From: Entamoeba invadens IP1
Lineage: Eukaryota > Evosea > Mastigamoebida > Endamoebidae
Direction: 5' to 3'
NCBI RefSeq assembly: GCF_000330505.1
Contig: NW_004443692.1
Coordinates: 995,408-1,059,407, forward strand
Length of the DNA: 64,000 nucleotides
Shown: positions 1 to 34,514 of the stretch, piece after piece
How the letters are laid out: the number at the start of each line of letters is the position of its first letter
How positions within the stretch are numbered: position 1 is the first letter of the stretch
Made by a program: the position numbers and the translations under genes
The notes under the pieces: model-generated
Databases searched by the model: none
The model's input: only the letters and a program-made list of their open reading frames with translations
Told to the model about the DNA's origin: nothing

Positions 1-287
1 TGTTGATTGTATTTGTTAATTTTATACTTATCGTCTTCGTCGTCATCACCTTTCTTAGTCGCTTTTGAAACTTGACTGTTTGATAGTTCACTTACTTTGC
101 TTTTCAAATTGTCCATAAATCCATGTAACTCAAACTCACTAAAATCGTCGGTTTCATCATAATTTTCTATATCAAAATCGTCACAATCTTCAAACTCGTC
201 ATTGTCAAATAACTCCTCGAGGTTTTCCAAATCGTCATCAAATGATATCCCGAAGCATACCGCCACAAACACAAAAAGCAATAACAT
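1..287 (-). CDS. Acidic secreted protein, 3' part outside window (family member A)
   Basis: The ATG lies at 287 and the frame stays open to the window edge, giving the first 95 codons. The protein starts with a hydrophobic signal-peptide-like stretch (MLLLFVFVAVCFG), followed by a strongly acidic segment rich in Asp, Glu and Phe (for example DDDLENLEELFDNDEFED) and then a Lys/Ser-containing segment beginning NLKSKVSEL. This order matches the genes at 20790-21440 and 22376-22738, so I place it in the same family, although the diagnostic C-terminus lies outside the window. Function unknown. The signal peptide suggests entry into the secretory pathway. It was not assigned by similarity to any named family. 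Confidence 0.7.
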   Translation of the reverse strand, partial: MLLLFVFVAVCFGISFDDDLENLEELFDNDEFEDCDDFDIENYDETDDFSEFELHGFMDNLKSKVSELSNSQVSKATKKGDDDEDDKYKINKYNQ

Positions 288-11002: not shown

Positions 11003-14000
11003 ATGGCAATGGCTTTGAACAAAAGCGTCCAATGCCGGTTACCTCTTTTCACTCTATTCTTCTTGCTCTTCTTTTTACAGCGAGTATTTTCTATGTGTCC
11101 ACAAGGCTATTTTATCAACACGAATGGGGGGTGTTCGCCCGAATGCATTTTTGGAAAAAAGTGTATTAATGGGTGTTCCGAGCCAAATGTTTGTGACGAG
11201 TGTGACACATCATTTAATATCACGAAAAACTGTTTAAGATGTGCTGAAGGGTTTGTGTGGAATGGTGCTGGCAACTGTATGCAAATTCCTTATATAACGC
11301 AATGCACAGAATTTTTAAAGAACAATCAAAAGTTTACTTACAAAGTGACAAAAGACTCAAATTTTGAAATAAAAGTTTCACCCCAAGACGTCGTATTCTC
11401 AGAAACGTGGTGCTCTAAAGTAGTTCCCATATATCAACCGTTCACATATGGCGTTTGGCTTCAATTTCAAACTTCAGACCAAGAGGAGTTGATGGTGAGC
11501 ATTTTTGATAAGAGTTGCAAAGAGTCGAGTCACCTTTTTTTTTCTCTTCAGAAGTCGTGTGTTCTTGATGAGGCGTGTTTGTCAGAGGAAAAGAGTATGT
11601 GCATTTCGAATGGAACAAAACACACTTTTACAATAACGAAAGACCCAATTGTTGTGTTTGTCCATTCAGCTATCGGAGAATCAATACTTTCCGAATTTAG
11701 TCTGACTATATCTGTCGAGCAAAATCAGTGTGTTCCAAGTCCAACTACAATAGCATTTAATGACAACAATATAACAACACTAATTGTCGATCCAAACACC
11801 TTTGTATTGTCAAGAACAGCATGTCTTCAAGATGAAGCAAACATAAAGTGGTTTTCACTTGAAGGTGTCGATCAAAGAGTTCTTCTGAATTTATGTGAAT
11901 CGACTTATGCAGACGAAATTGCTCTTCAAGTCATCGACTTTGCATCAAGTGGTAAGTCATTCAATGACACGTTATGTGCTGGACTATCCGCCAATTGTTT
12001 AAATTACATTTCTGGAAATTGTGAGAATACAAAGTACTCGAAAATAGTTGTTAATGGGGGGTCGAAGACCCCAATTTATATCGGAATTACTATACCAAAT
12101 CGCGTCAATTACGGGTTGATAAAATTACACGTTGAAAAGATATGTCCTGAAAATTGTGGCTTTCATGGGACGTGCAATGAGCGGGTTGGGAAGTGTTTCT
12201 GTGAAGAGAATTACGTATTGAACGATCAAATATGTAGTCTCTGTGGAAATGGGATATTAGACACAACAGAAGACTGTGACGACTCATATTTAACAGATGT
12301 TCATTGTGACACGCATACCTGCAAATGTTATAGTGGATATTCTCCCCAACTTGTTGGAGGAAGAGTCCGTTGTATAATAGACACATGTGGGAATAACAGA
12401 ATCGACCCAAATGAAAGTTGTGAAGGGGGAGTCTTATGTGAGCGCTGTCAATGTCAAAATGGGAGTTACCCCCACCATCCAATACAATATGGATGTGTTC
12501 CCGAGACATGTGGAAATGGGCAGTTAGATGTGAATGAAGAGTGTGATGGTGGAGAAGGGTGTGTTGAGTGTTTGTGTGATAAGCAATTGATGTATTTTGC
12601 AAACAACAACATTGATTGTAAGAACACACAAGATCGAAACAAGTTAATATCGTCACTAACACCAACAATAGGGTTGTATATCTTTTTATACTTTGTGTTA
12701 CTTTTTGTCTATTATTTGAGGTATAATAATTTGAACGCAGTCATCACTAAAGCACACAAAGAAAAGGAAATGTACAACCAAATAATTATGACGGGGATTA
12801 TTCCCTTTTCTAAACAAAACGCACAAAAGATCACTAAACTCGACAATCCGTTCTTCAAAATATCCGCCGAAACGTTGGATTTTGGGGAAGACAAATTGGA
12901 GCTCAACCAACCCTATTACTTTTCTTTCACTTTACAAAATTTGTTTTCGAAAGTACTGCTGTTCACGTTCCATGGAGTCGACTCACATAAATACAGACTC
13001 ACGTTTAAACCACCCACTGGCGCAATTTTCACGAACGAAACAATACAAGTCAAAGCGACTTTGGTCATGTTGTGCACAACAAAAGTCACTGAAAAGGTGA
13101 AAGTGACTCTCAAATATGGCAAAAACAAGAAGGTGAACAAAGAGGTGTCTCAGGAGATTTTAAGGAAGTGCCCCGAAGTTGTTGGAGGGACTTTCTCGTC
13201 ATCACACCGCCTTACTATCAGTCGGTCGAGTCGGATCCTTAAGAAGTCATCCACTCTTCCCTCGAAAGTCTCTTCGTTCTATGTCAACTTAAGACTTCAA
13301 ACGGAGAGTGTCTTATCGTCTCGAATCGATTTGGATGAAATTGAAATCAAACAGCCACCGGTAGGGCAAGGCAGTTTTGGATTAGTGTATGAAGGGGTAT
13401 GGCGAGGCGCTGAAGTTGCTGTGAAGATGTTAAAAAGTGATATGTTTGACACAGAAACTCTTCTTCCCAGTTTCATGGAAGAATGCGAATTAATGGAAAG
13501 AATTCGAAGTCCATTTGTGTTAGGTTTTATTGGCAGTGTAGTGATGCCGGATCAACTCTGCTTACTCACAGAATTCTGTCCTTTGTTCTCCTTACGTAAA
13601 TTCATGAAGACAAATTCGATGAGCACACAACTGAAAGTTCGTATCTGCCAAGATATAGCTAAAGGGATGGACTACTTGCATCAGAACAATATTGTACACA
13701 GAGACTTGAAGAGCGACAACGTCTTAATGGTGTCTAAAAATCCGAATGAACCCGTTTGTGTTAAAATCTCTGATTTTGGTACCTCAGCACTCTTTGTGGA
13801 CACCAAGAGCGCAAAGAAAATCGTCGACATAGGAACACCAATGTACATGGCGCCCGAAGTCCATGACAAGAGTCTTGGAAATGCCAGTTTCAAGTGTGAT
13901 GTGTTCTCTTTTGCTATTTGTATATTAGAGATCTGGCTTACAAAGTCACCATACGACCCCGATGTTTTCGCTACACCAGCAAGTATCCAAGAATTTGTGA

Positions 14001-15087
14001 TGAGTGGAAAGCGCCCGCTGATACCAAAAGTGTGTGTATATAGAAGAATAATTCGAAAGTGTTGGCAACACAAACCACGCAGTCGTCCCACTTTTGCGGA
14101 GATCAGTAAGGAACTCGACGTCATCTACCAAAAAGTGTTTGAAGGAAGTCGAAGTCAACGTACGAGTTGTAACATTGGCGTTGTTACGACGGACACGGAC
14201 ACTGATNNNNNNNNNNNNNNNNNNNNNNNNNNNNNNNNNNNNNNNNNNNNNNNNNNNNNNNNNNNNNNNNNNNNNNNNNNNNNNNNNNNNNNNNNNNNNN
14301 NNNNNNCAGAGAAACAGAAAGCAGAAATAGTGAGAGTAAAACCACGGAGAGTCGATTTGAAACGTTGCGAAACATGCGACTGTCGACGAAATTGCCATTC
14401 AGAAAGGTCAAGAAAATTTCGTTTGATAACATCCTCGAGCTGAGCTCAGAGGACTACAACAACAGCGAGAATGAGAGAGATTATTCTGTCGTTGATATCG
14501 ACTCTTTTGAGACGCCAAGAATGAGTCTGTGCGAGAAAACACCAAGAGACTTCAATGAAGTCAAATTGCATCGACCAAGTTCGTCACTTCCGGAGTCACA
14601 ACTCTCCGAAATGGTAAACAAAAAGAATGAACAGCAAGTCAAGATGGAGGGCATAGTCGAGAAGAACGCAATGGATGAGACAACGGTGTTAGGAATGACA
14701 CAAACAAAGTCGAATGAGACTAATGAAAAATCAGTGGAAGCCACTAACTCGTCTTCAGGCGATGAAATCATTCAAATGATACTTGAGAAGTCCAAAACGT
14801 CACGTTTCATTAAGCCGAGTCGGGTGAGCGAAAGTGAAAATAAAAGTCTTCCAAAGATACAACAAGAGAATGTTGTACCATTTAAAAGTCTTTCTGGAGA
14901 CGGCAAAGCAACACCCGTTGACACAAATCACACATTATTATCACCAAAGGTGTGTACTAAGAAGTCTGTTGTCATCACAAAGGAAATTGTCAAATCAAAA
15001 AGGAAAACACGACTTGGAGAAAACATTATTTCGGTCCACGACATCAACACTAATGAGAAGCCAACAAACGTTCTCATTGCGAATTGA
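11003..15087 (+). CDS. Transmembrane receptor kinase (Entamoeba TMK), interrupted by an assembly gap
   Basis: Signal peptide about 1-30 (LPLFTLFFLLFFLQRVFS). The ectodomain has Cys-rich parts, including three CGNG-type repeats (CGNGILDTTEDCDDS, CGNNRIDPNESCEGG, CGNGQLDVNEECDGG) just before the membrane. One TM helix at about 555-576. An MSP-like domain (about 620-715) precedes a tyrosine-kinase-like domain (about 785-1040) with VGQGSFGLVYEG, VAVKML, HRDLKSDN, DFGTSA and GTPMYMAPE. At residue 1068 the sequence enters 100 N. After the gap a different frame is open back to the gap edge and runs 260 residues to a stop at 15087 as a Ser/Lys/Glu-rich tail. I infer that this is the same protein, because a 100-N gap is an arbitrary length and resets the frame. 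Ligand unknown. Confidence 0.88.
14207..14306. other. Assembly gap (100 N)
   Basis: Exactly 100 N, the usual placeholder for a gap of unknown size. The bases just before it are a short GGACAC repeat coding Thr-Asp-Thr-Asp, so a collapsed simple repeat in the receptor-kinase tail is a likely cause. Confidence 0.95.
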
Positions 15088-20789: not shown

Positions 20790-21440
20790 TTAATACCACC
20801 TTCTGAGTGGACTGTAGTACAAGTACGGGTAAGATGCATATCCCAAGAAGTATTGATCATAGCCGTTCCAATACATGTTGTGATAAAAGCTTCTAGCATC
20901 GCAACCTCTGACTTTTTTCTTTGAGTAAGATGGTGTTGAATCCTCATCCAAACCAAGGTGTTTATTGAGGAATTTTTTTGCATATTTCGATCCTTTATGA
21001 ACCAATTTGTTCAAAACTTTTTTCCCTGTGTGTCCAAGTGCTCCACTATTTAATTTTTCTTTGATTTTATCAATGATACCATCGTCATTCAATTGAAACT
21101 CGTTTGAATCTTTTGTGTCATCAAATTCATTCGCATACATCCCATTCGTATATCCAAAGTCTGTATTTGTCATTCCCACATCTTCTTCGTCTTTATTACT
21201 TTCATCATCTTTATCTTCTTTTTCTTCATTTGCATTATCTTCGTTCTTATCAGTTGTGTAATCGTCAAATTCAAAATCTTCAAAGTCATCTTCATGGTCT
21301 TCATTATCGTTCAACTTAAACTCATCAATAATATCATTCACTTCACCCCCCAATAATTCGTTGTCAAATAAAAAATCGGCGTTATCACCCTCCTCGGCAC
21401 ATACGCCCCAACAAAAAATCCAAAAGAGTAAATACAACAT
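20790..21440 (-). CDS. Acidic secreted protein, family member B
   Basis: 216 aa from the ATG at 21440, chosen because it gives a signal peptide (MLYLLFWIFCWGVCA); the frame is open upstream to an ATG at 21566, which would bury that peptide. After the signal comes a long acidic region (EDDFEDFEFDDYTTDKNED and more). Next is a Lys-rich, probably helical stretch (GKKVLNKLVHKGSKYAKKFL), then a C-terminus rich in Tyr and Phe ending YPYLYYSPLRRWY. The same order and the same ending are in the gene at 22376-22738. A TGAACT motif, like the GAAC promoter element of Entamoeba, lies on the coding strand at 21466-21461. No known family recognised. Confidence 0.8.
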   Translation of the reverse strand: MLYLLFWIFCWGVCAEEGDNADFLFDNELLGGEVNDIIDEFKLNDNEDHEDDFEDFEFDDYTTDKNEDNANEEKEDKDDESNKDEEDVGMTNTDFGYTNGMYANEFDDTKDSNEFQLNDDGIIDKIKEKLNSGALGHTGKKVLNKLVHKGSKYAKKFLNKHLGLDEDSTPSYSKKKVRGCDARSFYHNMYWNGYDQYFLGYASYPYLYYSPLRRWY

Positions 21441-22375
21441 AATAAAAAGGGGAGTTACAAAGTTCACCGTCGATTTTGTGACTTCCAGCACAAAAGTTGG
21501 TTTGAGGTTAATATTGTTAATATCAAACTTTTTAAAATAACAACTTTTGACAAAGAAAACAAACAAAAAAGATCTAACTTTTGTTTTAAAATGATGTTAA
21601 TATGTAACAATTTACATTCAAGAATACAAACCTCTGTGTTAATTTAAAAAAATAAGTCTTTTGATTAATTGTTCAGTATGGTCACTCTTCCTTGTTAAAA
21701 CTTTGTCTTATGCAAGACTTTTAATTTAAAAATATTAGTTAATAAAAACCATTTTAATAAATTAAAACTGAAACCGATTTTAGTGTTTTTTGTTTGTAAT
21801 TATTAAACTATATAATAATATATTTAAATTAAAATTTAACCATTAAAGTCTTGCATGAACAAATTTTTTACATAAGGTAGAGTGGCAATATAATACTTTT
21901 GTATACTCTTAAATTGAAACTACATACAGAAATAGTATTTTGACATAGAATTCTATCCAAACAATACCCTTTAAAATATATATACAACGAACAATAAACA
22001 ATTAAAAAATAGGTAAAAATTCATAAGAATGGTAAAAAAAGAAACAATATTTTTTTAGTGTTATGAATATTTATCTAATAGATTCGAGTGATTAACATCT
22101 AAAAATGAGCGAAAACACAAAATGTTTAATATTTACAAAATTTCAACATTATTAACCATTTAAAAATTAAAAAATATATCAAATTTTTTATCAATACAAT
22201 AAAATCATTACACGTCGTTGTTTTATTTATAAAAAATGTTTTGACCTTTACACACAAATTAAAACAATTTATAATCAAAATTGCGTGTAACAAAAATGAA
22301 AAAAATATGACTCTCTTCGTGTTATTTCAAAAAACCAACAGCCAAATATTCATATTTTTAGCCTAGCAGCGATGG
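21441..22375. other. Spacer between acidic secreted-protein genes B and C
   Basis: 935 bp, AT-rich. No coding sequence was found; it includes the promoter of gene B with the TGAACT motif at 21466-21461 on the minus strand. No inverted repeats of note. Confidence 0.6.
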
Positions 22376-22738
22376 TCAATACCACTTGTACATTGGATGA
22401 TTGTAAATGAATGGGTAACGATCGGCACTGAAATAGGCACCAGAATATCCATACCCATGACCAAAGAGATGACTGTAAAAGTGTTTATGTCTTCTTATCC
22501 CGAGCAGTGATTTAGCTCCCTTTACTATTTTTTTACCCACTTTCTTTGCAACTTTAATCAAATTAAAATCGTCGTCATCAAACAGCTCAAACTCATCCAC
22601 CAAATCGTCCAAATATGATTCGTCTTCAAAGTCATCTTCAAACTCGAAGTCATCCTCTTCAACATCAAGAAGGAAATCGTCATCGGAACTCTTTGCCAAC
22701 GTGCTGATGAACATCAAACATATCATCAAATACAACAT
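22376..22738 (-). CDS. Acidic secreted protein, family member C
   Basis: 120 aa. Signal peptide MLYLMICLMFISTLAKS, then an acidic block (DDDFLLDVEEDDFEFEDDFED and following), then a strongly cationic amphipathic stretch (LIKVAKKVGKKIVKGAKSLL), then a Gly/His/Tyr-rich C-terminus ending YPFIYNHPMYKWY. The ending matches member B (YP, aromatic, Tyr, two residues, Pro, two residues, basic, WY). Charge is segregated: acidic first, basic second. This recalls proproteins that mask a cationic peptide, but no cleavage site is evident and function is unknown. A TGAACT motif lies at 22772-22767 on the coding strand, about 30 bp upstream of the ATG. Confidence 0.82.
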   Translation of the reverse strand: MLYLMICLMFISTLAKSSDDDFLLDVEEDDFEFEDDFEDESYLDDLVDEFELFDDDDFNLIKVAKKVGKKIVKGAKSLLGIRRHKHFYSHLFGHGYGYSGAYFSADRYPFIYNHPMYKWY

Positions 22739-29897: not shown

Positions 29898-32800
29898 TTA
29901 CAGTTTTTCGAGTCGACTTTTAATCTGCTCGAAGGTTGGTCTTTGATTTGGGTTGTTATCCCAACACAAGCTAATGAGTTCGAAAACACTATTTTCCATG
30001 TTATCTGGTTTCCCAATTCTTTTTCCGGACGTCACGAAGTCTGCTATGAGCCATGGGTACTCGAACTTTTTGTTAGTCTCCGGGTAGCTTTTGTCCCATA
30101 TAAAAGTTTCGAACATAGTGACTGCAAAGGAGTATACGTCTGCTTGTTTTGTGTACTTTTCCATTCTGAGTATTTCAGGGCTCATGAATGAAGGCGTTCC
30201 GATGGCTTTAGTGAATGTCAAATTCAACGTGTTAACTGTGTATTTTGAACTTCCAAAATCCGAGATCTTTGCGTTGCAATAAGCGTTGTTAGAGAGATCC
30301 ACCAGCAATATGTTTCCAGGTTTTACGTCTCTGTGTAAGATATTGTGGCGATGAAGATATTCCAAACCACAGCAACTGTCTTTAAGTATCTTAATTTTGA
30401 ATTCTTTTGAAAATTCTTTACTTTGGTCAATTCTTTGCTGTAGAGATCCAAACTCTGCCAATTCCTCGACCAATATGACTTTTTGTACTGAAGTAAAACA
30501 ACCTATATATGAAATTATAAAGTCGTTCTGAATCTTTTCGAGTACATCAATTTCATTTAACAACAACTCTTGTGCCTTCTCTTGATGCACAAAAAGGTAT
30601 TTCATCTCCTTCACAGCGACTTTCTGTCCACGATAATAACCAGAGTATACATTACTGCATGCTCCATGGCCTATAATATTCTTCACTACTATCTCATCTT
30701 CAGAAATGCGTTTCGACATCTCAACATCAAATTGCATCTTAATCTTAACTTTAGTCTTCTTGTTGGTGCTCACACTCGTCGCAATGATATTAAGCTCTTC
30801 TTCACTTTTAAATGTGCACGTTGGTAGTACTGATATCAATACCTCACAACAGTAATTTGGTTTTAATAAGAACACATCTGGTGATGATGTGACATTCACC
30901 TTATTTTTTATATTACCTGTAACCACTTGAAATATTTGTAAACATTTCTGTGCGTTTCCTATCACAATCGTACGCACTCGGGGGACATTGACTATTAGTA
31001 AATTATCGTCAACAAAATTAATGACTCTCTCACCCACTATTATCCCATTTTGTGTATCCTTTTCTGTAACAAATCGATACTCAGACATCTTCATCGAGTT
31101 GTGCTTGTACTTGTTTTTGTATGAGTTGTGGACGTTCACCAATTTTCGGATGACAAAATAACTGATGGCAACACTAATGATAATAACAACAATAATTGTC
31201 AACAGTAATACTATCACAGGTATCCACTCAAAGTAAAACAAGCACTTACTCCCATCTGGACTTGGTCTTCTCCAGAACTCACATCTGGCACACTTCGAAT
31301 TTTTGGCTTTAATACAACTTTCAATGGCAGTGTAATTGAAACAACTCTCGTTTATTAAGACTCCAGTGGTACAATATAAACAACGATCATATGTCTTACA
31401 TCGCCCACACCAATTGGAACATTTTTTACAATTGCCATCTTCAAGGTAATACTGATCTTGACACGTCTTACACCCCAAAGAACCTATTGGAGAATCTAAA
31501 CAGTGCAAAACTGTGTTTTTACATACACAACTGCCATTCTTTGGTAACCAATAATAATTGGAAGAACATGTTGTACATACAGTAGAGGTGACACATGCCG
31601 CACATGATTTATTGCACTTTTTGCATTGTGTTCCACTTTTGTAATACCCAATTTGACACGTAATGCACCAACCATTTTGTGCTACAAGCGCACAAGAATC
31701 TGCAGAGAATTCGTAGTACACACAAGTGCCATTGTTTAGATAAGATACCGTTTTGTCACAAGACAAACAACGAGTTGATATCTTCGAACAAGAAAGACAA
31801 TCTTTATCACATTTTGCACATCTTCCGGTAGAGTCGACAAAGTACCCAAAATCACAACTAGAACATCCAAGTGTGGTGTATGACACACATTTTTCAACAG
31901 TTGTATAACATTTCCCATGTGATAGATAAGTCGAACTATTACATTTAATACACCCATTGTTGTAAACGAGACAGTCATTCAACGTTTTCTCGCATCTGCC
32001 ATTCTCACTTTTCGAATATCCACTTTGACACCCAAAAATCTTGTTTTCAAGGATCATATACCCAATCGGTGAACGGCATATGTTATTCACAAAAAGTGTG
32101 TTTGAATTGCATTTGGTGCACATCTTTTTGTTACAAACGTTACAATCTATATCTAAACTAGTACATATAGTACATTTTGTATCATTGAGAAAATAGCCAT
32201 CTTTACAACTTGTAATTGTGTATTCATTGGTGGTCTGACTTCCATCTGGGGTGTAACAAAACCCGTTATAATTGATCACTGAATTTCCTTTACAAAGAAT
32301 ACACTTTAACCCACTACACTTTTTGCAAAATGGCAAACACATGTCACATGAATTGTATTGTGTATTTAACGCACCTTCTCCACAAAATACACATCTCTCA
32401 TTTGTGGCTAATGTGCATGTGTCGGGGAGTTTAAGACATTGAAAATTAGAGAGATAATAATGAGGCGCACATTTAATACATTTTGTCGTGTTAGTGCAGA
32501 CTTCACAATTACTTGGACATTCCGAGCACTTCTTCCCAAAATCGACAAAGTATCCTTTTGCACATACAAGTGAATAGTTAGTCAAACACTCCGACATGTT
32601 TGTCACCAACGCACTCTGACAATTATCCACACTATTAAATGAGAAGTTTGTGTTTGCTTTAAAGAGAAACACAGATGGTGCTATTTGAATGATTTCTGCT
32701 ATAGCTTGATCCTGTGAAGTGGTGTGTTGTACTAATGATATAGTAATCTCATTTTCATTAATCATAATACTTTCTTCTGCTTTTGTCTCTTCTTCATATA

Positions 32801-34514
32801 ACGAGAATTTCAGTGTTATTGATAAAGGGTTGTTGTTATTTTTATCTATTAGTGCGACCAATGTTCTTGGTGTGGCATCTTCTCCTTTCAAATCCGACTT
32901 GTTAGAAGTCTTGTGATTCACTCTTCTCTCAATTTTTAATACATCCGAATAAATCACTCGATTTAAAGAAGTGTTTATATGCAATTCGACATCATGACCA
33001 CCTATTTCTAATAAATCGGCATTTACCACATTTCCATTGAAGTAATCTCTGTTCTTAAAAGTCACTTTTTGTTTCATTGTGTGGACAAAACACATTTGTC
33101 CAGAACATGGGCAGTTCGGTGTGATGAATGGGTAAGAGGAATTCCAATTAAATTCATTTTCCCACATTGTTCCATTCATAAAGCAGTGGATGTCGTATTC
33201 TTGTTCAAACACAAAGAACCTCTGTAATCTTCCGTTTTGAAGAAACAGTGGCGATTTGTCGTTCCTGAAAAAGTCTTTTGCATAAACAAAGAAATTTACC
33301 ACAGAGGTTGCCATTTTCAGAAGAACGTCTTTATTAAAAACGTCGAATCCATTGTAAAGTGTGAACAATGGATATTGTTGTGTGTCACCGTACCTTTGTG
33401 TGATAACACACGAGTCTAAAAATGCTGCGATGACACATCTCACGTCTGGATTATAATTAAAGTCGGGGTCACATATTTTCTGGTCCACTCCATTGCCATA
33501 TACAATTAATCTATCATTATACCGAAATGAAATTATGGCTTTGTTGCGCATTTCAAAATAATTGTCAACATACACAGTTGTATCATTATTTAAAGAAAAT
33601 AAGGATTCTCCTTGTAAATACATGTATTTCGTGAATATGGATGTGACGTTTTGAAGGTAGACCTTAGATGAATTAAGTAGAATCATTTCATTCACTCTTA
33701 TAATAGTTAAACTAAAAATTTTAATTTGTGAATTTCCGTTTGTAACAAAAGAATCTATTGTAAGTATCACTGCATTATTCAAAACTAAAATGGTGTTGTC
33801 GAATATTAAAAAGGAATTTTTGATGGTGGCCTTCGTGTTTGGGTACAAAGAAAACAATGCTTCATTGTTGAGCACCACTGAATTTTGAATAGTCAAAGTG
33901 TTGTTGTCTAATGTATAAAACATCGATGTGTCATACAATGTGATGTTGTCTGACACTTCAAGTGTACAACAATAAAAAGACTCAAAATATGAAGAATTGT
34001 ATATTTCAAGATTTCCAGTGACAATTACTTTTGTGTAATTTTCCATCGAAAAAGATGAAGAATAAAATAAGGTCATATTTTTAGTTTGCAGAGATGAGTA
34101 TGGGTACACAACTATTGATGAAGTCCCCAAAATAAAAACGTTACCGAACGACACGGTGCAAGAAGATAATATTAAGACTGTGGAATCTTGTAAAATCAAG
34201 TCTTTATTTTGACTCACATTTGTTGTGATTTGAATAGTTTGGTCTTTGTAAATCACAGTGTCTTCCTTCTTACTATTACCACAATAGGATTTGGTTATGT
34301 CAAATGTGTCGAAACCTGTTTTTGATTTAAGTTTTACTTTATTGTAAAAAGAAGAAGTCGTGTTATTAATTCTTTCCATAAATAGGATGGTATCAAATGT
34401 GGAGGTCTCATTGTCATTTGAAGTGTTTAAAAAGTTCTCAACTCTTACATAACCACCGACTGAATAAATAAGTAACTTTATGATTATTGTCTGTGCAAGA
34501 AAAAAGCACAGCAT
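29898..34514 (-). CDS. Transmembrane receptor kinase with CXXC-rich ectodomain (Entamoeba TMK)
   Basis: 1538 aa, single exon. Signal peptide about 1-20. Residues about 60-330 form a repeated beta-strand region (FNGNVVN-, NNSSTVYV-like) that may fold as a right-handed helix. Residues about 640-1090 are densely CXXC-rich, in units like CSKCNKSCAACVT. TM helix about 1098-1122 (IPVIVLLLTIIVVIIISVAI). A kinase domain (about 1272-1538) has IIGHGACSNVYSG, VAVKEM, HRDVKPGN, DFGSSKY, GTPSFMSPE and the C-terminal RPTFEQI; all catalytic residues are present. It reaches the C-terminus without a tail, unlike the kinase at 11003. Expected to sense surface ligands and signal by Ser/Thr or Tyr phosphorylation. 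Confidence 0.94.
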   Translation of the reverse strand: MLCFFLAQTIIIKLLIYSVGGYVRVENFLNTSNDNETSTFDTILFMERINNTTSSFYNKVKLKSKTGFDTFDITKSYCGNSKKEDTVIYKDQTIQITTNVSQNKDLILQDSTVLILSSCTVSFGNVFILGTSSIVVYPYSSLQTKNMTLFYSSSFSMENYTKVIVTGNLEIYNSSYFESFYCCTLEVSDNITLYDTSMFYTLDNNTLTIQNSVVLNNEALFSLYPNTKATIKNSFLIFDNTILVLNNAVILTIDSFVTNGNSQIKIFSLTIIRVNEMILLNSSKVYLQNVTSIFTKYMYLQGESLFSLNNDTTVYVDNYFEMRNKAIISFRYNDRLIVYGNGVDQKICDPDFNYNPDVRCVIAAFLDSCVITQRYGDTQQYPLFTLYNGFDVFNKDVLLKMATSVVNFFVYAKDFFRNDKSPLFLQNGRLQRFFVFEQEYDIHCFMNGTMWENEFNWNSSYPFITPNCPCSGQMCFVHTMKQKVTFKNRDYFNGNVVNADLLEIGGHDVELHINTSLNRVIYSDVLKIERRVNHKTSNKSDLKGEDATPRTLVALIDKNNNNPLSITLKFSLYEEETKAEESIMINENEITISLVQHTTSQDQAIAEIIQIAPSVFLFKANTNFSFNSVDNCQSALVTNMSECLTNYSLVCAKGYFVDFGKKCSECPSNCEVCTNTTKCIKCAPHYYLSNFQCLKLPDTCTLATNERCVFCGEGALNTQYNSCDMCLPFCKKCSGLKCILCKGNSVINYNGFCYTPDGSQTTNEYTITSCKDGYFLNDTKCTICTSLDIDCNVCNKKMCTKCNSNTLFVNNICRSPIGYMILENKIFGCQSGYSKSENGRCEKTLNDCLVYNNGCIKCNSSTYLSHGKCYTTVEKCVSYTTLGCSSCDFGYFVDSTGRCAKCDKDCLSCSKISTRCLSCDKTVSYLNNGTCVYYEFSADSCALVAQNGWCITCQIGYYKSGTQCKKCNKSCAACVTSTVCTTCSSNYYWLPKNGSCVCKNTVLHCLDSPIGSLGCKTCQDQYYLEDGNCKKCSNWCGRCKTYDRCLYCTTGVLINESCFNYTAIESCIKAKNSKCARCEFWRRPSPDGSKCLFYFEWIPVIVLLLTIIVVIIISVAISYFVIRKLVNVHNSYKNKYKHNSMKMSEYRFVTEKDTQNGIIVGERVINFVDDNLLIVNVPRVRTIVIGNAQKCLQIFQVVTGNIKNKVNVTSSPDVFLLKPNYCCEVLISVLPTCTFKSEEELNIIATSVSTNKKTKVKIKMQFDVEMSKRISEDEIVVKNIIGHGACSNVYSGYYRGQKVAVKEMKYLFVHQEKAQELLLNEIDVLEKIQNDFIISYIGCFTSVQKVILVEELAEFGSLQQRIDQSKEFSKEFKIKILKDSCCGLEYLHRHNILHRDVKPGNILLVDLSNNAYCNAKISDFGSSKYTVNTLNLTFTKAIGTPSFMSPEILRMEKYTKQADVYSFAVTMFETFIWDKSYPETNKKFEYPWLIADFVTSGKRIGKPDNMENSVFELISLCWDNNPNQRPTFEQIKSRLEKL

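What the first reader, a model, noticed from the sequence alone, without database searches (positions are those of the whole stretch)
20790..22738. Undescribed family of acidic secreted proteins with a shared aromatic C-terminus
Members B and C have a signal peptide, an acidic block, a Lys-rich stretch, and the same ending: YP, aromatic, hydrophobic, Tyr, two residues, Pro, two residues, basic, Trp-Tyr at the stop. A third member starts at 287. I recognise no named family. The conserved tail could be a sorting, lectin-like or oligomerisation signal for an amoeba-specific secreted product, for example in the cyst wall.
Basis: partly seen in the sequence, partly recalled or inferred. Interest (0 to 1): 0.75.

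Follow-up and report, generated by a model that had tools for sequence, protein, structure and literature searches.

The report
Small secreted amoeba proteins, aromatic tail
Two neighbouring genes of a reptile-infecting amoeba belong to a small, so far unnamed family of secreted acidic proteins that share an aromatic ending; what they do is not known, but some carry a positively charged helix of the kind found in microbe-killing peptides.

Summary
B (20790-21440, -) and C (22376-22738, -) are complete ORFs with a signal-peptide-like start, an acidic block, a Lys-rich stretch and exactly the ending described (2 of 335 ORFs). The organism is Entamoeba invadens IP1: paralogues E and F are annotated hypothetical proteins EIN_094980 and EIN_207030. 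The similarity spans about 34 residues and recurs in D, E and F. C, D and E are secure; B and F are weaker, though above shuffles. The third gene, at 287, is spliced; its tail is aromatic but not measurably similar. No Pfam family matches; three searches of 5.8 billion proteins returned only E. invadens proteins.

My leading reading is a charge-masked cationic peptide precursor; a self-assembling matrix protein is nearly as likely. E and F lack the helix. A cyst-wall role found no clear support: encystation promoter motifs gave no consistent signal, and Cys-rich chitin-binding domains are absent. A real, undescribed family with an open mechanism.

The parts
20790..21440 (-). gene B, single-exon CDS, 216 aa, net charge -26
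   Evidence: identical to database protein P0003
21393..21440 (-). B signal-peptide-like N-terminus (residues 1-16, cut site guessed by eye)
   Evidence: read by eye; helix 2-20 in the model; SignalP not run
21069..21392 (-). B acidic block (about residues 17-124; net -36 for residues 18-124)
20955..21083 (-). B Lys-rich region, predicted helices 120-131, 137-149, 151-162; best 18-mer moment 0.68, charge +6
   Evidence: pLDDT block means 63-67 for residues 121-160
20793..20891 (-). B aromatic C-terminal module (residues 184-216)
22376..22738 (-). gene C, single-exon CDS, 120 aa, net charge -12
   Evidence: identical to database protein P0001
22691..22738 (-). C signal-peptide-like N-terminus (residues 1-16)
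   Evidence: read by eye; helix 2-16, block-mean pLDDT 76 for residues 1-10
22565..22684 (-). C acidic block (about residues 19-58; net -24 for residues 18-58), with a predicted helix 41-53
22496..22564 (-). C cationic amphipathic helix (about residues 59-81); best 18-mer moment 0.73, charge +7
   Evidence: helix 58-77, low confidence
22379..22483 (-). C aromatic C-terminal module (residues 86-120)
3..287 (-). gene A, part of exon 1 (residues 1-95); two introns (L004:5390-5350 and 5325-5256) and exons 2-3 lie left of the window
   Evidence: membership in the family inconclusive, tail not met

Best explanation
A small family of secreted, cysteine-poor proteins known only from E. invadens. Shown by sequence: a hydrophobic N-terminus, an acidic spacer of variable length, and a roughly 34-residue aromatic/His/Gly C-terminal module, clear in C, D and E, weaker in B and F. 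B, C and D also carry a cationic amphipathic helix just before the module, so that helix plus module is +11 to +12 whatever the length of the acidic part. Inferred: in B, C and D the protein enters secretory vesicles as a precursor in which the acidic part masks the cationic helix-plus-aromatic part; cleavage or dilution on release frees the cationic part, which binds anionic surfaces such as the envelopes of bacteria met in the gut or phagosome, or polymers of the amoeba's own coat. E and F lack the helix and keep only the acidic spacer and the module, so there the module must work by association rather than membrane attack.
For: Family: C-D E = 1.5e-7 and 2.5e-8 in searches of the 35 Mb genome; E-F 1.9e-7 (an alignment that includes the acidic block and reads through one stop) and 0.0013. 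Tail shuffles reaching the score, of 2000: C-D, C-E, D-E, B-E, C-F and E-F 0 each, B-C 1, D-F 4, B-D 16, B-F 174. A DNA pattern for FY.H.FG.G, drawn from C, D and E, hit these three places and no other, reversed control 0. Helix: of 35 non-overlapping ORFs of at least 100 aa in the window, B and C included, the six 18-mers with charge >= +6 and moment >= 0.65 all lie in B and C, none in the other 33; D has one of 0.72, +7. Charge, acidic/rest: B -36/+12, C -24/+11, D -8/+11. Models put helices on the Lys-rich stretch of C (58-77) and B (within 120-162). In the module the third codon position is the least conserved in six of six pairs among B-E (C-D 21, 26, 14 of 34 at positions 1, 2, 3), though by one codon only in C-B, and the alignment was made on the protein.
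Against: E and F have no such helix, and A has none by the same scan, so the reading covers 3 of 6 genes. The helices are alike in property, not clearly in sequence: 46 (C-D), 63 (D-B) and 679 (C-B) of 2000 shuffles reach the score. I saw no conserved processing site. Models are poor: mean pLDDT 50.7 and 51.9, pTM 0.16 and 0.22. The helix of C alone matches no solved chain at E <= 10. Thresholds, windows and cut points were chosen after seeing B and C. No expression or activity data were available. D was returned by none of the protein searches and may not be an expressed gene.
Confidence: 0.38

Rival explanations
1. Matrix or granule protein: the acidic block with cationic and aromatic (Tyr/His/Gly) parts makes the protein condense with itself or with other secreted polymers, as packaging in secretory vesicles or as glue of the surface coat or cyst wall. 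The shared module is the sticky part.
For: It explains the five tail-bearing genes (B-F), also E and F without the helix. The last 40 residues hold 10 to 18 aromatic or His residues in B-F. A precedent in the genus: the C-terminal domain of Jessie3 does not bind chitin and self-aggregates (PMC2698119, passages). One of four known developmental motifs, CCCCCC, is upstream of F on the reverse strand (1 of 6 members, 0 of 26 other window genes).
Against: Known Entamoeba wall lectins carry Cys-rich chitin-binding domains (PMC2698119, passages); A-F have 0 or 1 Cys after residue 20. That paper names three lectin families as found in the wall by mass spectrometry and no protein of this kind in the passages seen. 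The other motifs do not point to encystation: CAACAAA on the sense strand 0 of 6 against 6 of 26 other window genes (either strand 1 of 6 against 11 of 26), TCACTTTC 0 of 6 against 1 of 26, CCAAT on either strand 2 of 6 against 19 of 26.
Confidence: 0.34
2. Sorting or retention tag: the tail is read by a receptor in the secretory pathway or at the surface and the rest of the protein is passive.
For: The tail is the best conserved part and sits at the very C-terminus in B, C, D and E.
Against: It is long (about 34 residues) for a tag; in F about 13 more residues follow; the last two residues differ (WY, WY, QI, IY). The exact ending is in 2 of 335 ORFs examined, B and C, and the FY.H.FG.G pattern found no unrelated gene; the genome's other proteins were not tested for the full tail.
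Confidence: 0.12
3. Cation-binding or buffering acidic secreted protein: the acidic block is the working part, and tail and helix only localise it.
For: G and H have a signal-like start and an acidic block without the tail and score against full-length profiles of the family (G up to 34.7 bits). D/E make up 21 to 43% of seven of eight proteins A-H.
Against: In D the acidic part has shrunk to net -8 while helix and tail are kept, the reverse of what this predicts.
Confidence: 0.11
4. Convergence or artefact: acidic low-complexity ORFs with chance aromatic endings.
For: Full-length profile scores are inflated by acidic composition: G outscores left-out A, B, D and F, and H outscores A and B. B's tail, left out, scores just 3.3 bits and 2 of 323 decoy ORFs score higher. 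B's own genome search found only itself.
Against: Left-out tails of C, D and E score 30.0, 23.9 and 31.5 bits, above all 323 decoys and 500 shuffles each; E and F are annotated genes.
Confidence: 0.05

Closest known systems
Precursors of cationic amphipathic antimicrobial peptides (signal, anionic pro-part, cationic helix; class recalled)
   Same: Order of parts and charge split in B, C and D.
   Different: The helix is followed by an aromatic module; no conserved cleavage site seen; E and F lack the helix; no sequence match of C's helix to a solved chain; no activity tested.
Entamoeba Jessie3 lectin (unique C-terminal self-aggregating domain)
   Same: Secreted Entamoeba protein with its own C-terminal domain that does not bind chitin (PMC2698119, passages).
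   Different: Jessie3 is a roughly 60-kDa protein with an N-terminal Cys-rich chitin-binding domain (same passages); the present proteins are 92-216 aa with 0-1 Cys after residue 20 in A-F. No sequence comparison with Jessie3 was made.
Amoebapores (saposin-like pore formers of Entamoeba)
   Same: Small secreted Entamoeba proteins (recalled); membrane activity is only proposed for the present ones.
   Different: Saposin-like proteins are defined by disulfide-linked Cys (recalled); A-F have 0-1 Cys after residue 20, and no saposin family appeared in the Pfam scans.

Membership tests
Entamoeba cyst-wall lectins (Jacob, Jessie, chitinase) | Cys-rich chitin-binding domain (6 Cys in Jacob, 8 in chitinase) | tested here: not met
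   0 or 1 Cys after residue 20 in A-F; feature as stated in PMC2698119 (passages)
Entamoeba cyst-wall lectins (Jacob, Jessie, chitinase) | expression in encystation | tested here: inconclusive
   promoter motifs give no consistent signal; expression tables are in supplements that could not be read; gene numbers of E and F are in no main text held
Amoebapore / saposin-like proteins | saposin-type Pfam match and conserved Cys (recalled) | tested here: not met
   no saposin family in Pfam scans of A-H; Cys after residue 20: 0-1 in A-G, 2 in H
Cationic amphipathic peptide precursors | cationic amphipathic helix | tested here: met
   met in B, C and D by moment and charge, with low-confidence helices in models of C and B; not met in A, E and F by the same scan
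Cationic amphipathic peptide precursors | anionic pro-part before the helix | tested here: met
   B -36, C -24, D -8
Cationic amphipathic peptide precursors | cleavage to a mature peptide | not testable with these tools
   no conserved site seen in the alignment; needs proteomics
Cationic amphipathic peptide precursors | membrane or antimicrobial activity | not testable with these tools
   bench assay needed
The family described here | module FY...(F/Y)..G ... YP.....P..(K/R) at or near the C-terminus | tested here: met
   C, D, E clear (D has one residue more between YP and P); B weaker; F weaker and starting YY; A not met, 295 of 500 shuffles reach its score

The most novel reading that the evidence does not exclude
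A new, Entamoeba-specific class of charge-masked, host-defence-like peptides: an acidic part of freely varying length cages a constant +11 to +12 helix-plus-aromatic unit that is cut loose on secretion to attack bacteria competing with or eaten by the amoeba, with side branches (E, F) turned into purely structural secreted proteins.
Probability: 0.2. Interest if true: 0.65.

Novelty: new variant of a known kind. Interest (0 to 1): 0.33.

Why it matters
The majority of E. invadens genes encode hypothetical proteins (PMC4053983, passage). This gives a handful of them a common, testable anatomy. If the cationic unit is active, it would be an arm of the amoeba's dealings with gut bacteria besides the amoebapores; if it self-assembles, it would be a coat or wall component without chitin-binding domains. 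Either can be tested with short peptides.

Tried and rejected
A as a third tail-bearing member: rejected for the tail. A's linker (EF.L and after) resembles B's weakly (19 of 2000 shuffles; with C 78 of 2000) and its N-terminus B's hardly (118 of 2000), all stretches picked by eye.

G (L058, found at E 4.16) and H (L053, found at E 0.0024): signal-like start and acidic block, no tail. I saw no tail in three frames downstream of G, and neither gene stretch holds GTTTGTT. Left outside the family.

Encystation motifs: no consistent signal. PDB: one chance hit for whole C (E 0.96), none for its helix. Pfam: only hits below cut-off for A-H. Fold search not run because both models are poor. Inverted-repeat search between the genes listed six short AT-rich pairs and missed the repeat later found by DNA search.

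Pattern one search was my error (one N short, out of frame); its single hit is unrelated. The corrected pattern, one mismatch allowed, gave 44 places against 22 for the control; of its four exact hits two are C and E and two are one identical stretch on C40 and C41, not pursued. C196:50158 (E 0.04) is an acidic ORF without the tail. The weak hits on C189, C186 and C137 look like other kinds of protein (by eye).

The alignments searched contain family members, so the E-values of those members there are not independent evidence.

Full report
What is there. B (20790-21440, -, 216 aa) and C (22376-22738, -, 120 aa) are complete single-exon ORFs, identical to proteins in the public database. A starts at 287 (-) and leaves the window. 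The genome gives it two introns beginning GTTTGTT and ending AG, and splicing them reproduces the database protein of 127 aa exactly.

Whose genome. The window lies in a 35 Mb, 233-contig assembly. A paralogue in the same genome is identical to 'hypothetical protein EIN_094980 [Entamoeba invadens IP1]' and another to EIN_207030, so the organism is E. invadens. No relative of the genome is held, so orthologues could not be sought by DNA.

The family. Single-protein searches of the genome found D (C151:185928-186203, 92 aa, L005:5929-6204), E (C151:281389-281763, 125 aa, EIN_094980) and F (C61:128949-129359, 137 aa, EIN_207030). The strongest links are C-D (1.5e-7 and 2.5e-8) and E-F (1.9e-7 one way, over an alignment that includes the acidic block and reads through one stop; 0.0013 the other way). 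C and E find each other only at E 1.03 and 2.36 in those searches. B's own search found only itself, with 2 candidates scored; B is tied in by pairwise comparison (E 8e-05; 1 of 2000 shuffles with C, 0 with E, 16 with D, 174 with F). A's own search found only itself. The alignment of the tails of B, C, D and E has six invariant columns: F, Y, G, Y, P, P.

Known families. Pfam gave no match above cut-off for A-H. The search needs shared 5-residue words, so distant orthologues in other Entamoeba are not excluded, and I did not verify which Entamoeba species the database holds. D was returned by none of them.

Anatomy. D/E content is 21-43% in seven of eight proteins and 11% in D; Cys after residue 20 is 0 or 1 in A-F. 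In B, C and D the Lys-rich stretch is an amphipathic cationic helix by moment (0.68, 0.73, 0.72 for 18-mers of charge +6, +7, +7). Among 35 window ORFs including B and C, only B and C hold 18-mers of charge >= +6 and moment >= 0.65; the thresholds were set after seeing them. Split before the helix, the charges are B -36/+12, C -24/+11, D -8/+11. The helix sequences themselves are only weakly alike (46, 63 and 679 of 2000 shuffles for C-D, D-B, C-B). AlphaFold models are poor (mean pLDDT 50.7 and 51.9) but place helices on these stretches, and on the tail only short helical turns near the end. In the module the third codon position is the least conserved in all six pairs among B, C, D and E, by one codon only in C-B.

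Mechanism. Shown: secreted-type N-terminus (by eye), acidic spacer, helix-type stretch in three members, module in five. Inferred: the acidic part masks the cationic part until release; the cationic aromatic part binds anionic surfaces. The constant +11 to +12 next to a freely varying acidic part is the main argument; the absence of the helix in E and F is the main objection. A self-assembling matrix protein explains E and F better and the charge split less well. A cyst-wall role in particular has no clear support. Of four motifs taken from passages of PMC6207428 and PMC11633172, CAACAAA, TCACTTTC and CCAAT are not commoner in the six promoters than in 26 other window genes, and CCCCCC is in one of six, on the reverse strand, against 0 of 26. 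The wall lectins described in PMC2698119 (passages) carry Cys-rich domains lacking here.

In print. EIN_094980 and EIN_207030 occur in no main text of the library, nor does EIN_094980 in PMC4053983. Listings (titles and abstract starts) for Entamoeba acidic cyst-wall proteins (14 of 14 shown), amphipathic peptides (6 of 6), the E. invadens secretome (8 of 13), Jessie (8 of 13) and the encystation transcriptome (20 of 100) showed no paper on such a family. The gene numbers of A, B and C were not shown to me, and supplementary tables could not be read.

Verdict.

Noticed in passing
window 21674-21891 (between C and B): A repeat of about 218 bases that also matches its own reverse strand; 44 matches at E <= 0.001 in the genome (itself included, some places counted on both strands), the others at 65-88% identity: looks like a short non-coding DNA transposon (MITE-like) between the two genes.
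   Followed up: partly
L058 (C7:674108) and L053 (C62:103060): Two more small ORFs, G and H, with signal-like start and a very acidic block but without the aromatic tail; G shares an EYELTQ stretch with F, and H has a basic, perhaps helical end.
   Followed up: partly
L004:5256-5390 and window 3-287: Gene A has two short introns starting GTTTGTT; reading without splicing gives a false C-terminus.
   Followed up: yes
window 11003-14443: A large ORF with signal-like start, Cys-rich part, membrane span and kinase domain (Entamoeba transmembrane-kinase type by eye) contains a run of unread letters; a second of this type lies at 29898-34514.
   Followed up: no
[quoted passage not shown]
   Followed up: no
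C40:39329 and C41:24567 (L022, L023): An identical 27-base exact match to the YP....HPM pattern on two contigs; not examined further.
   Followed up: no
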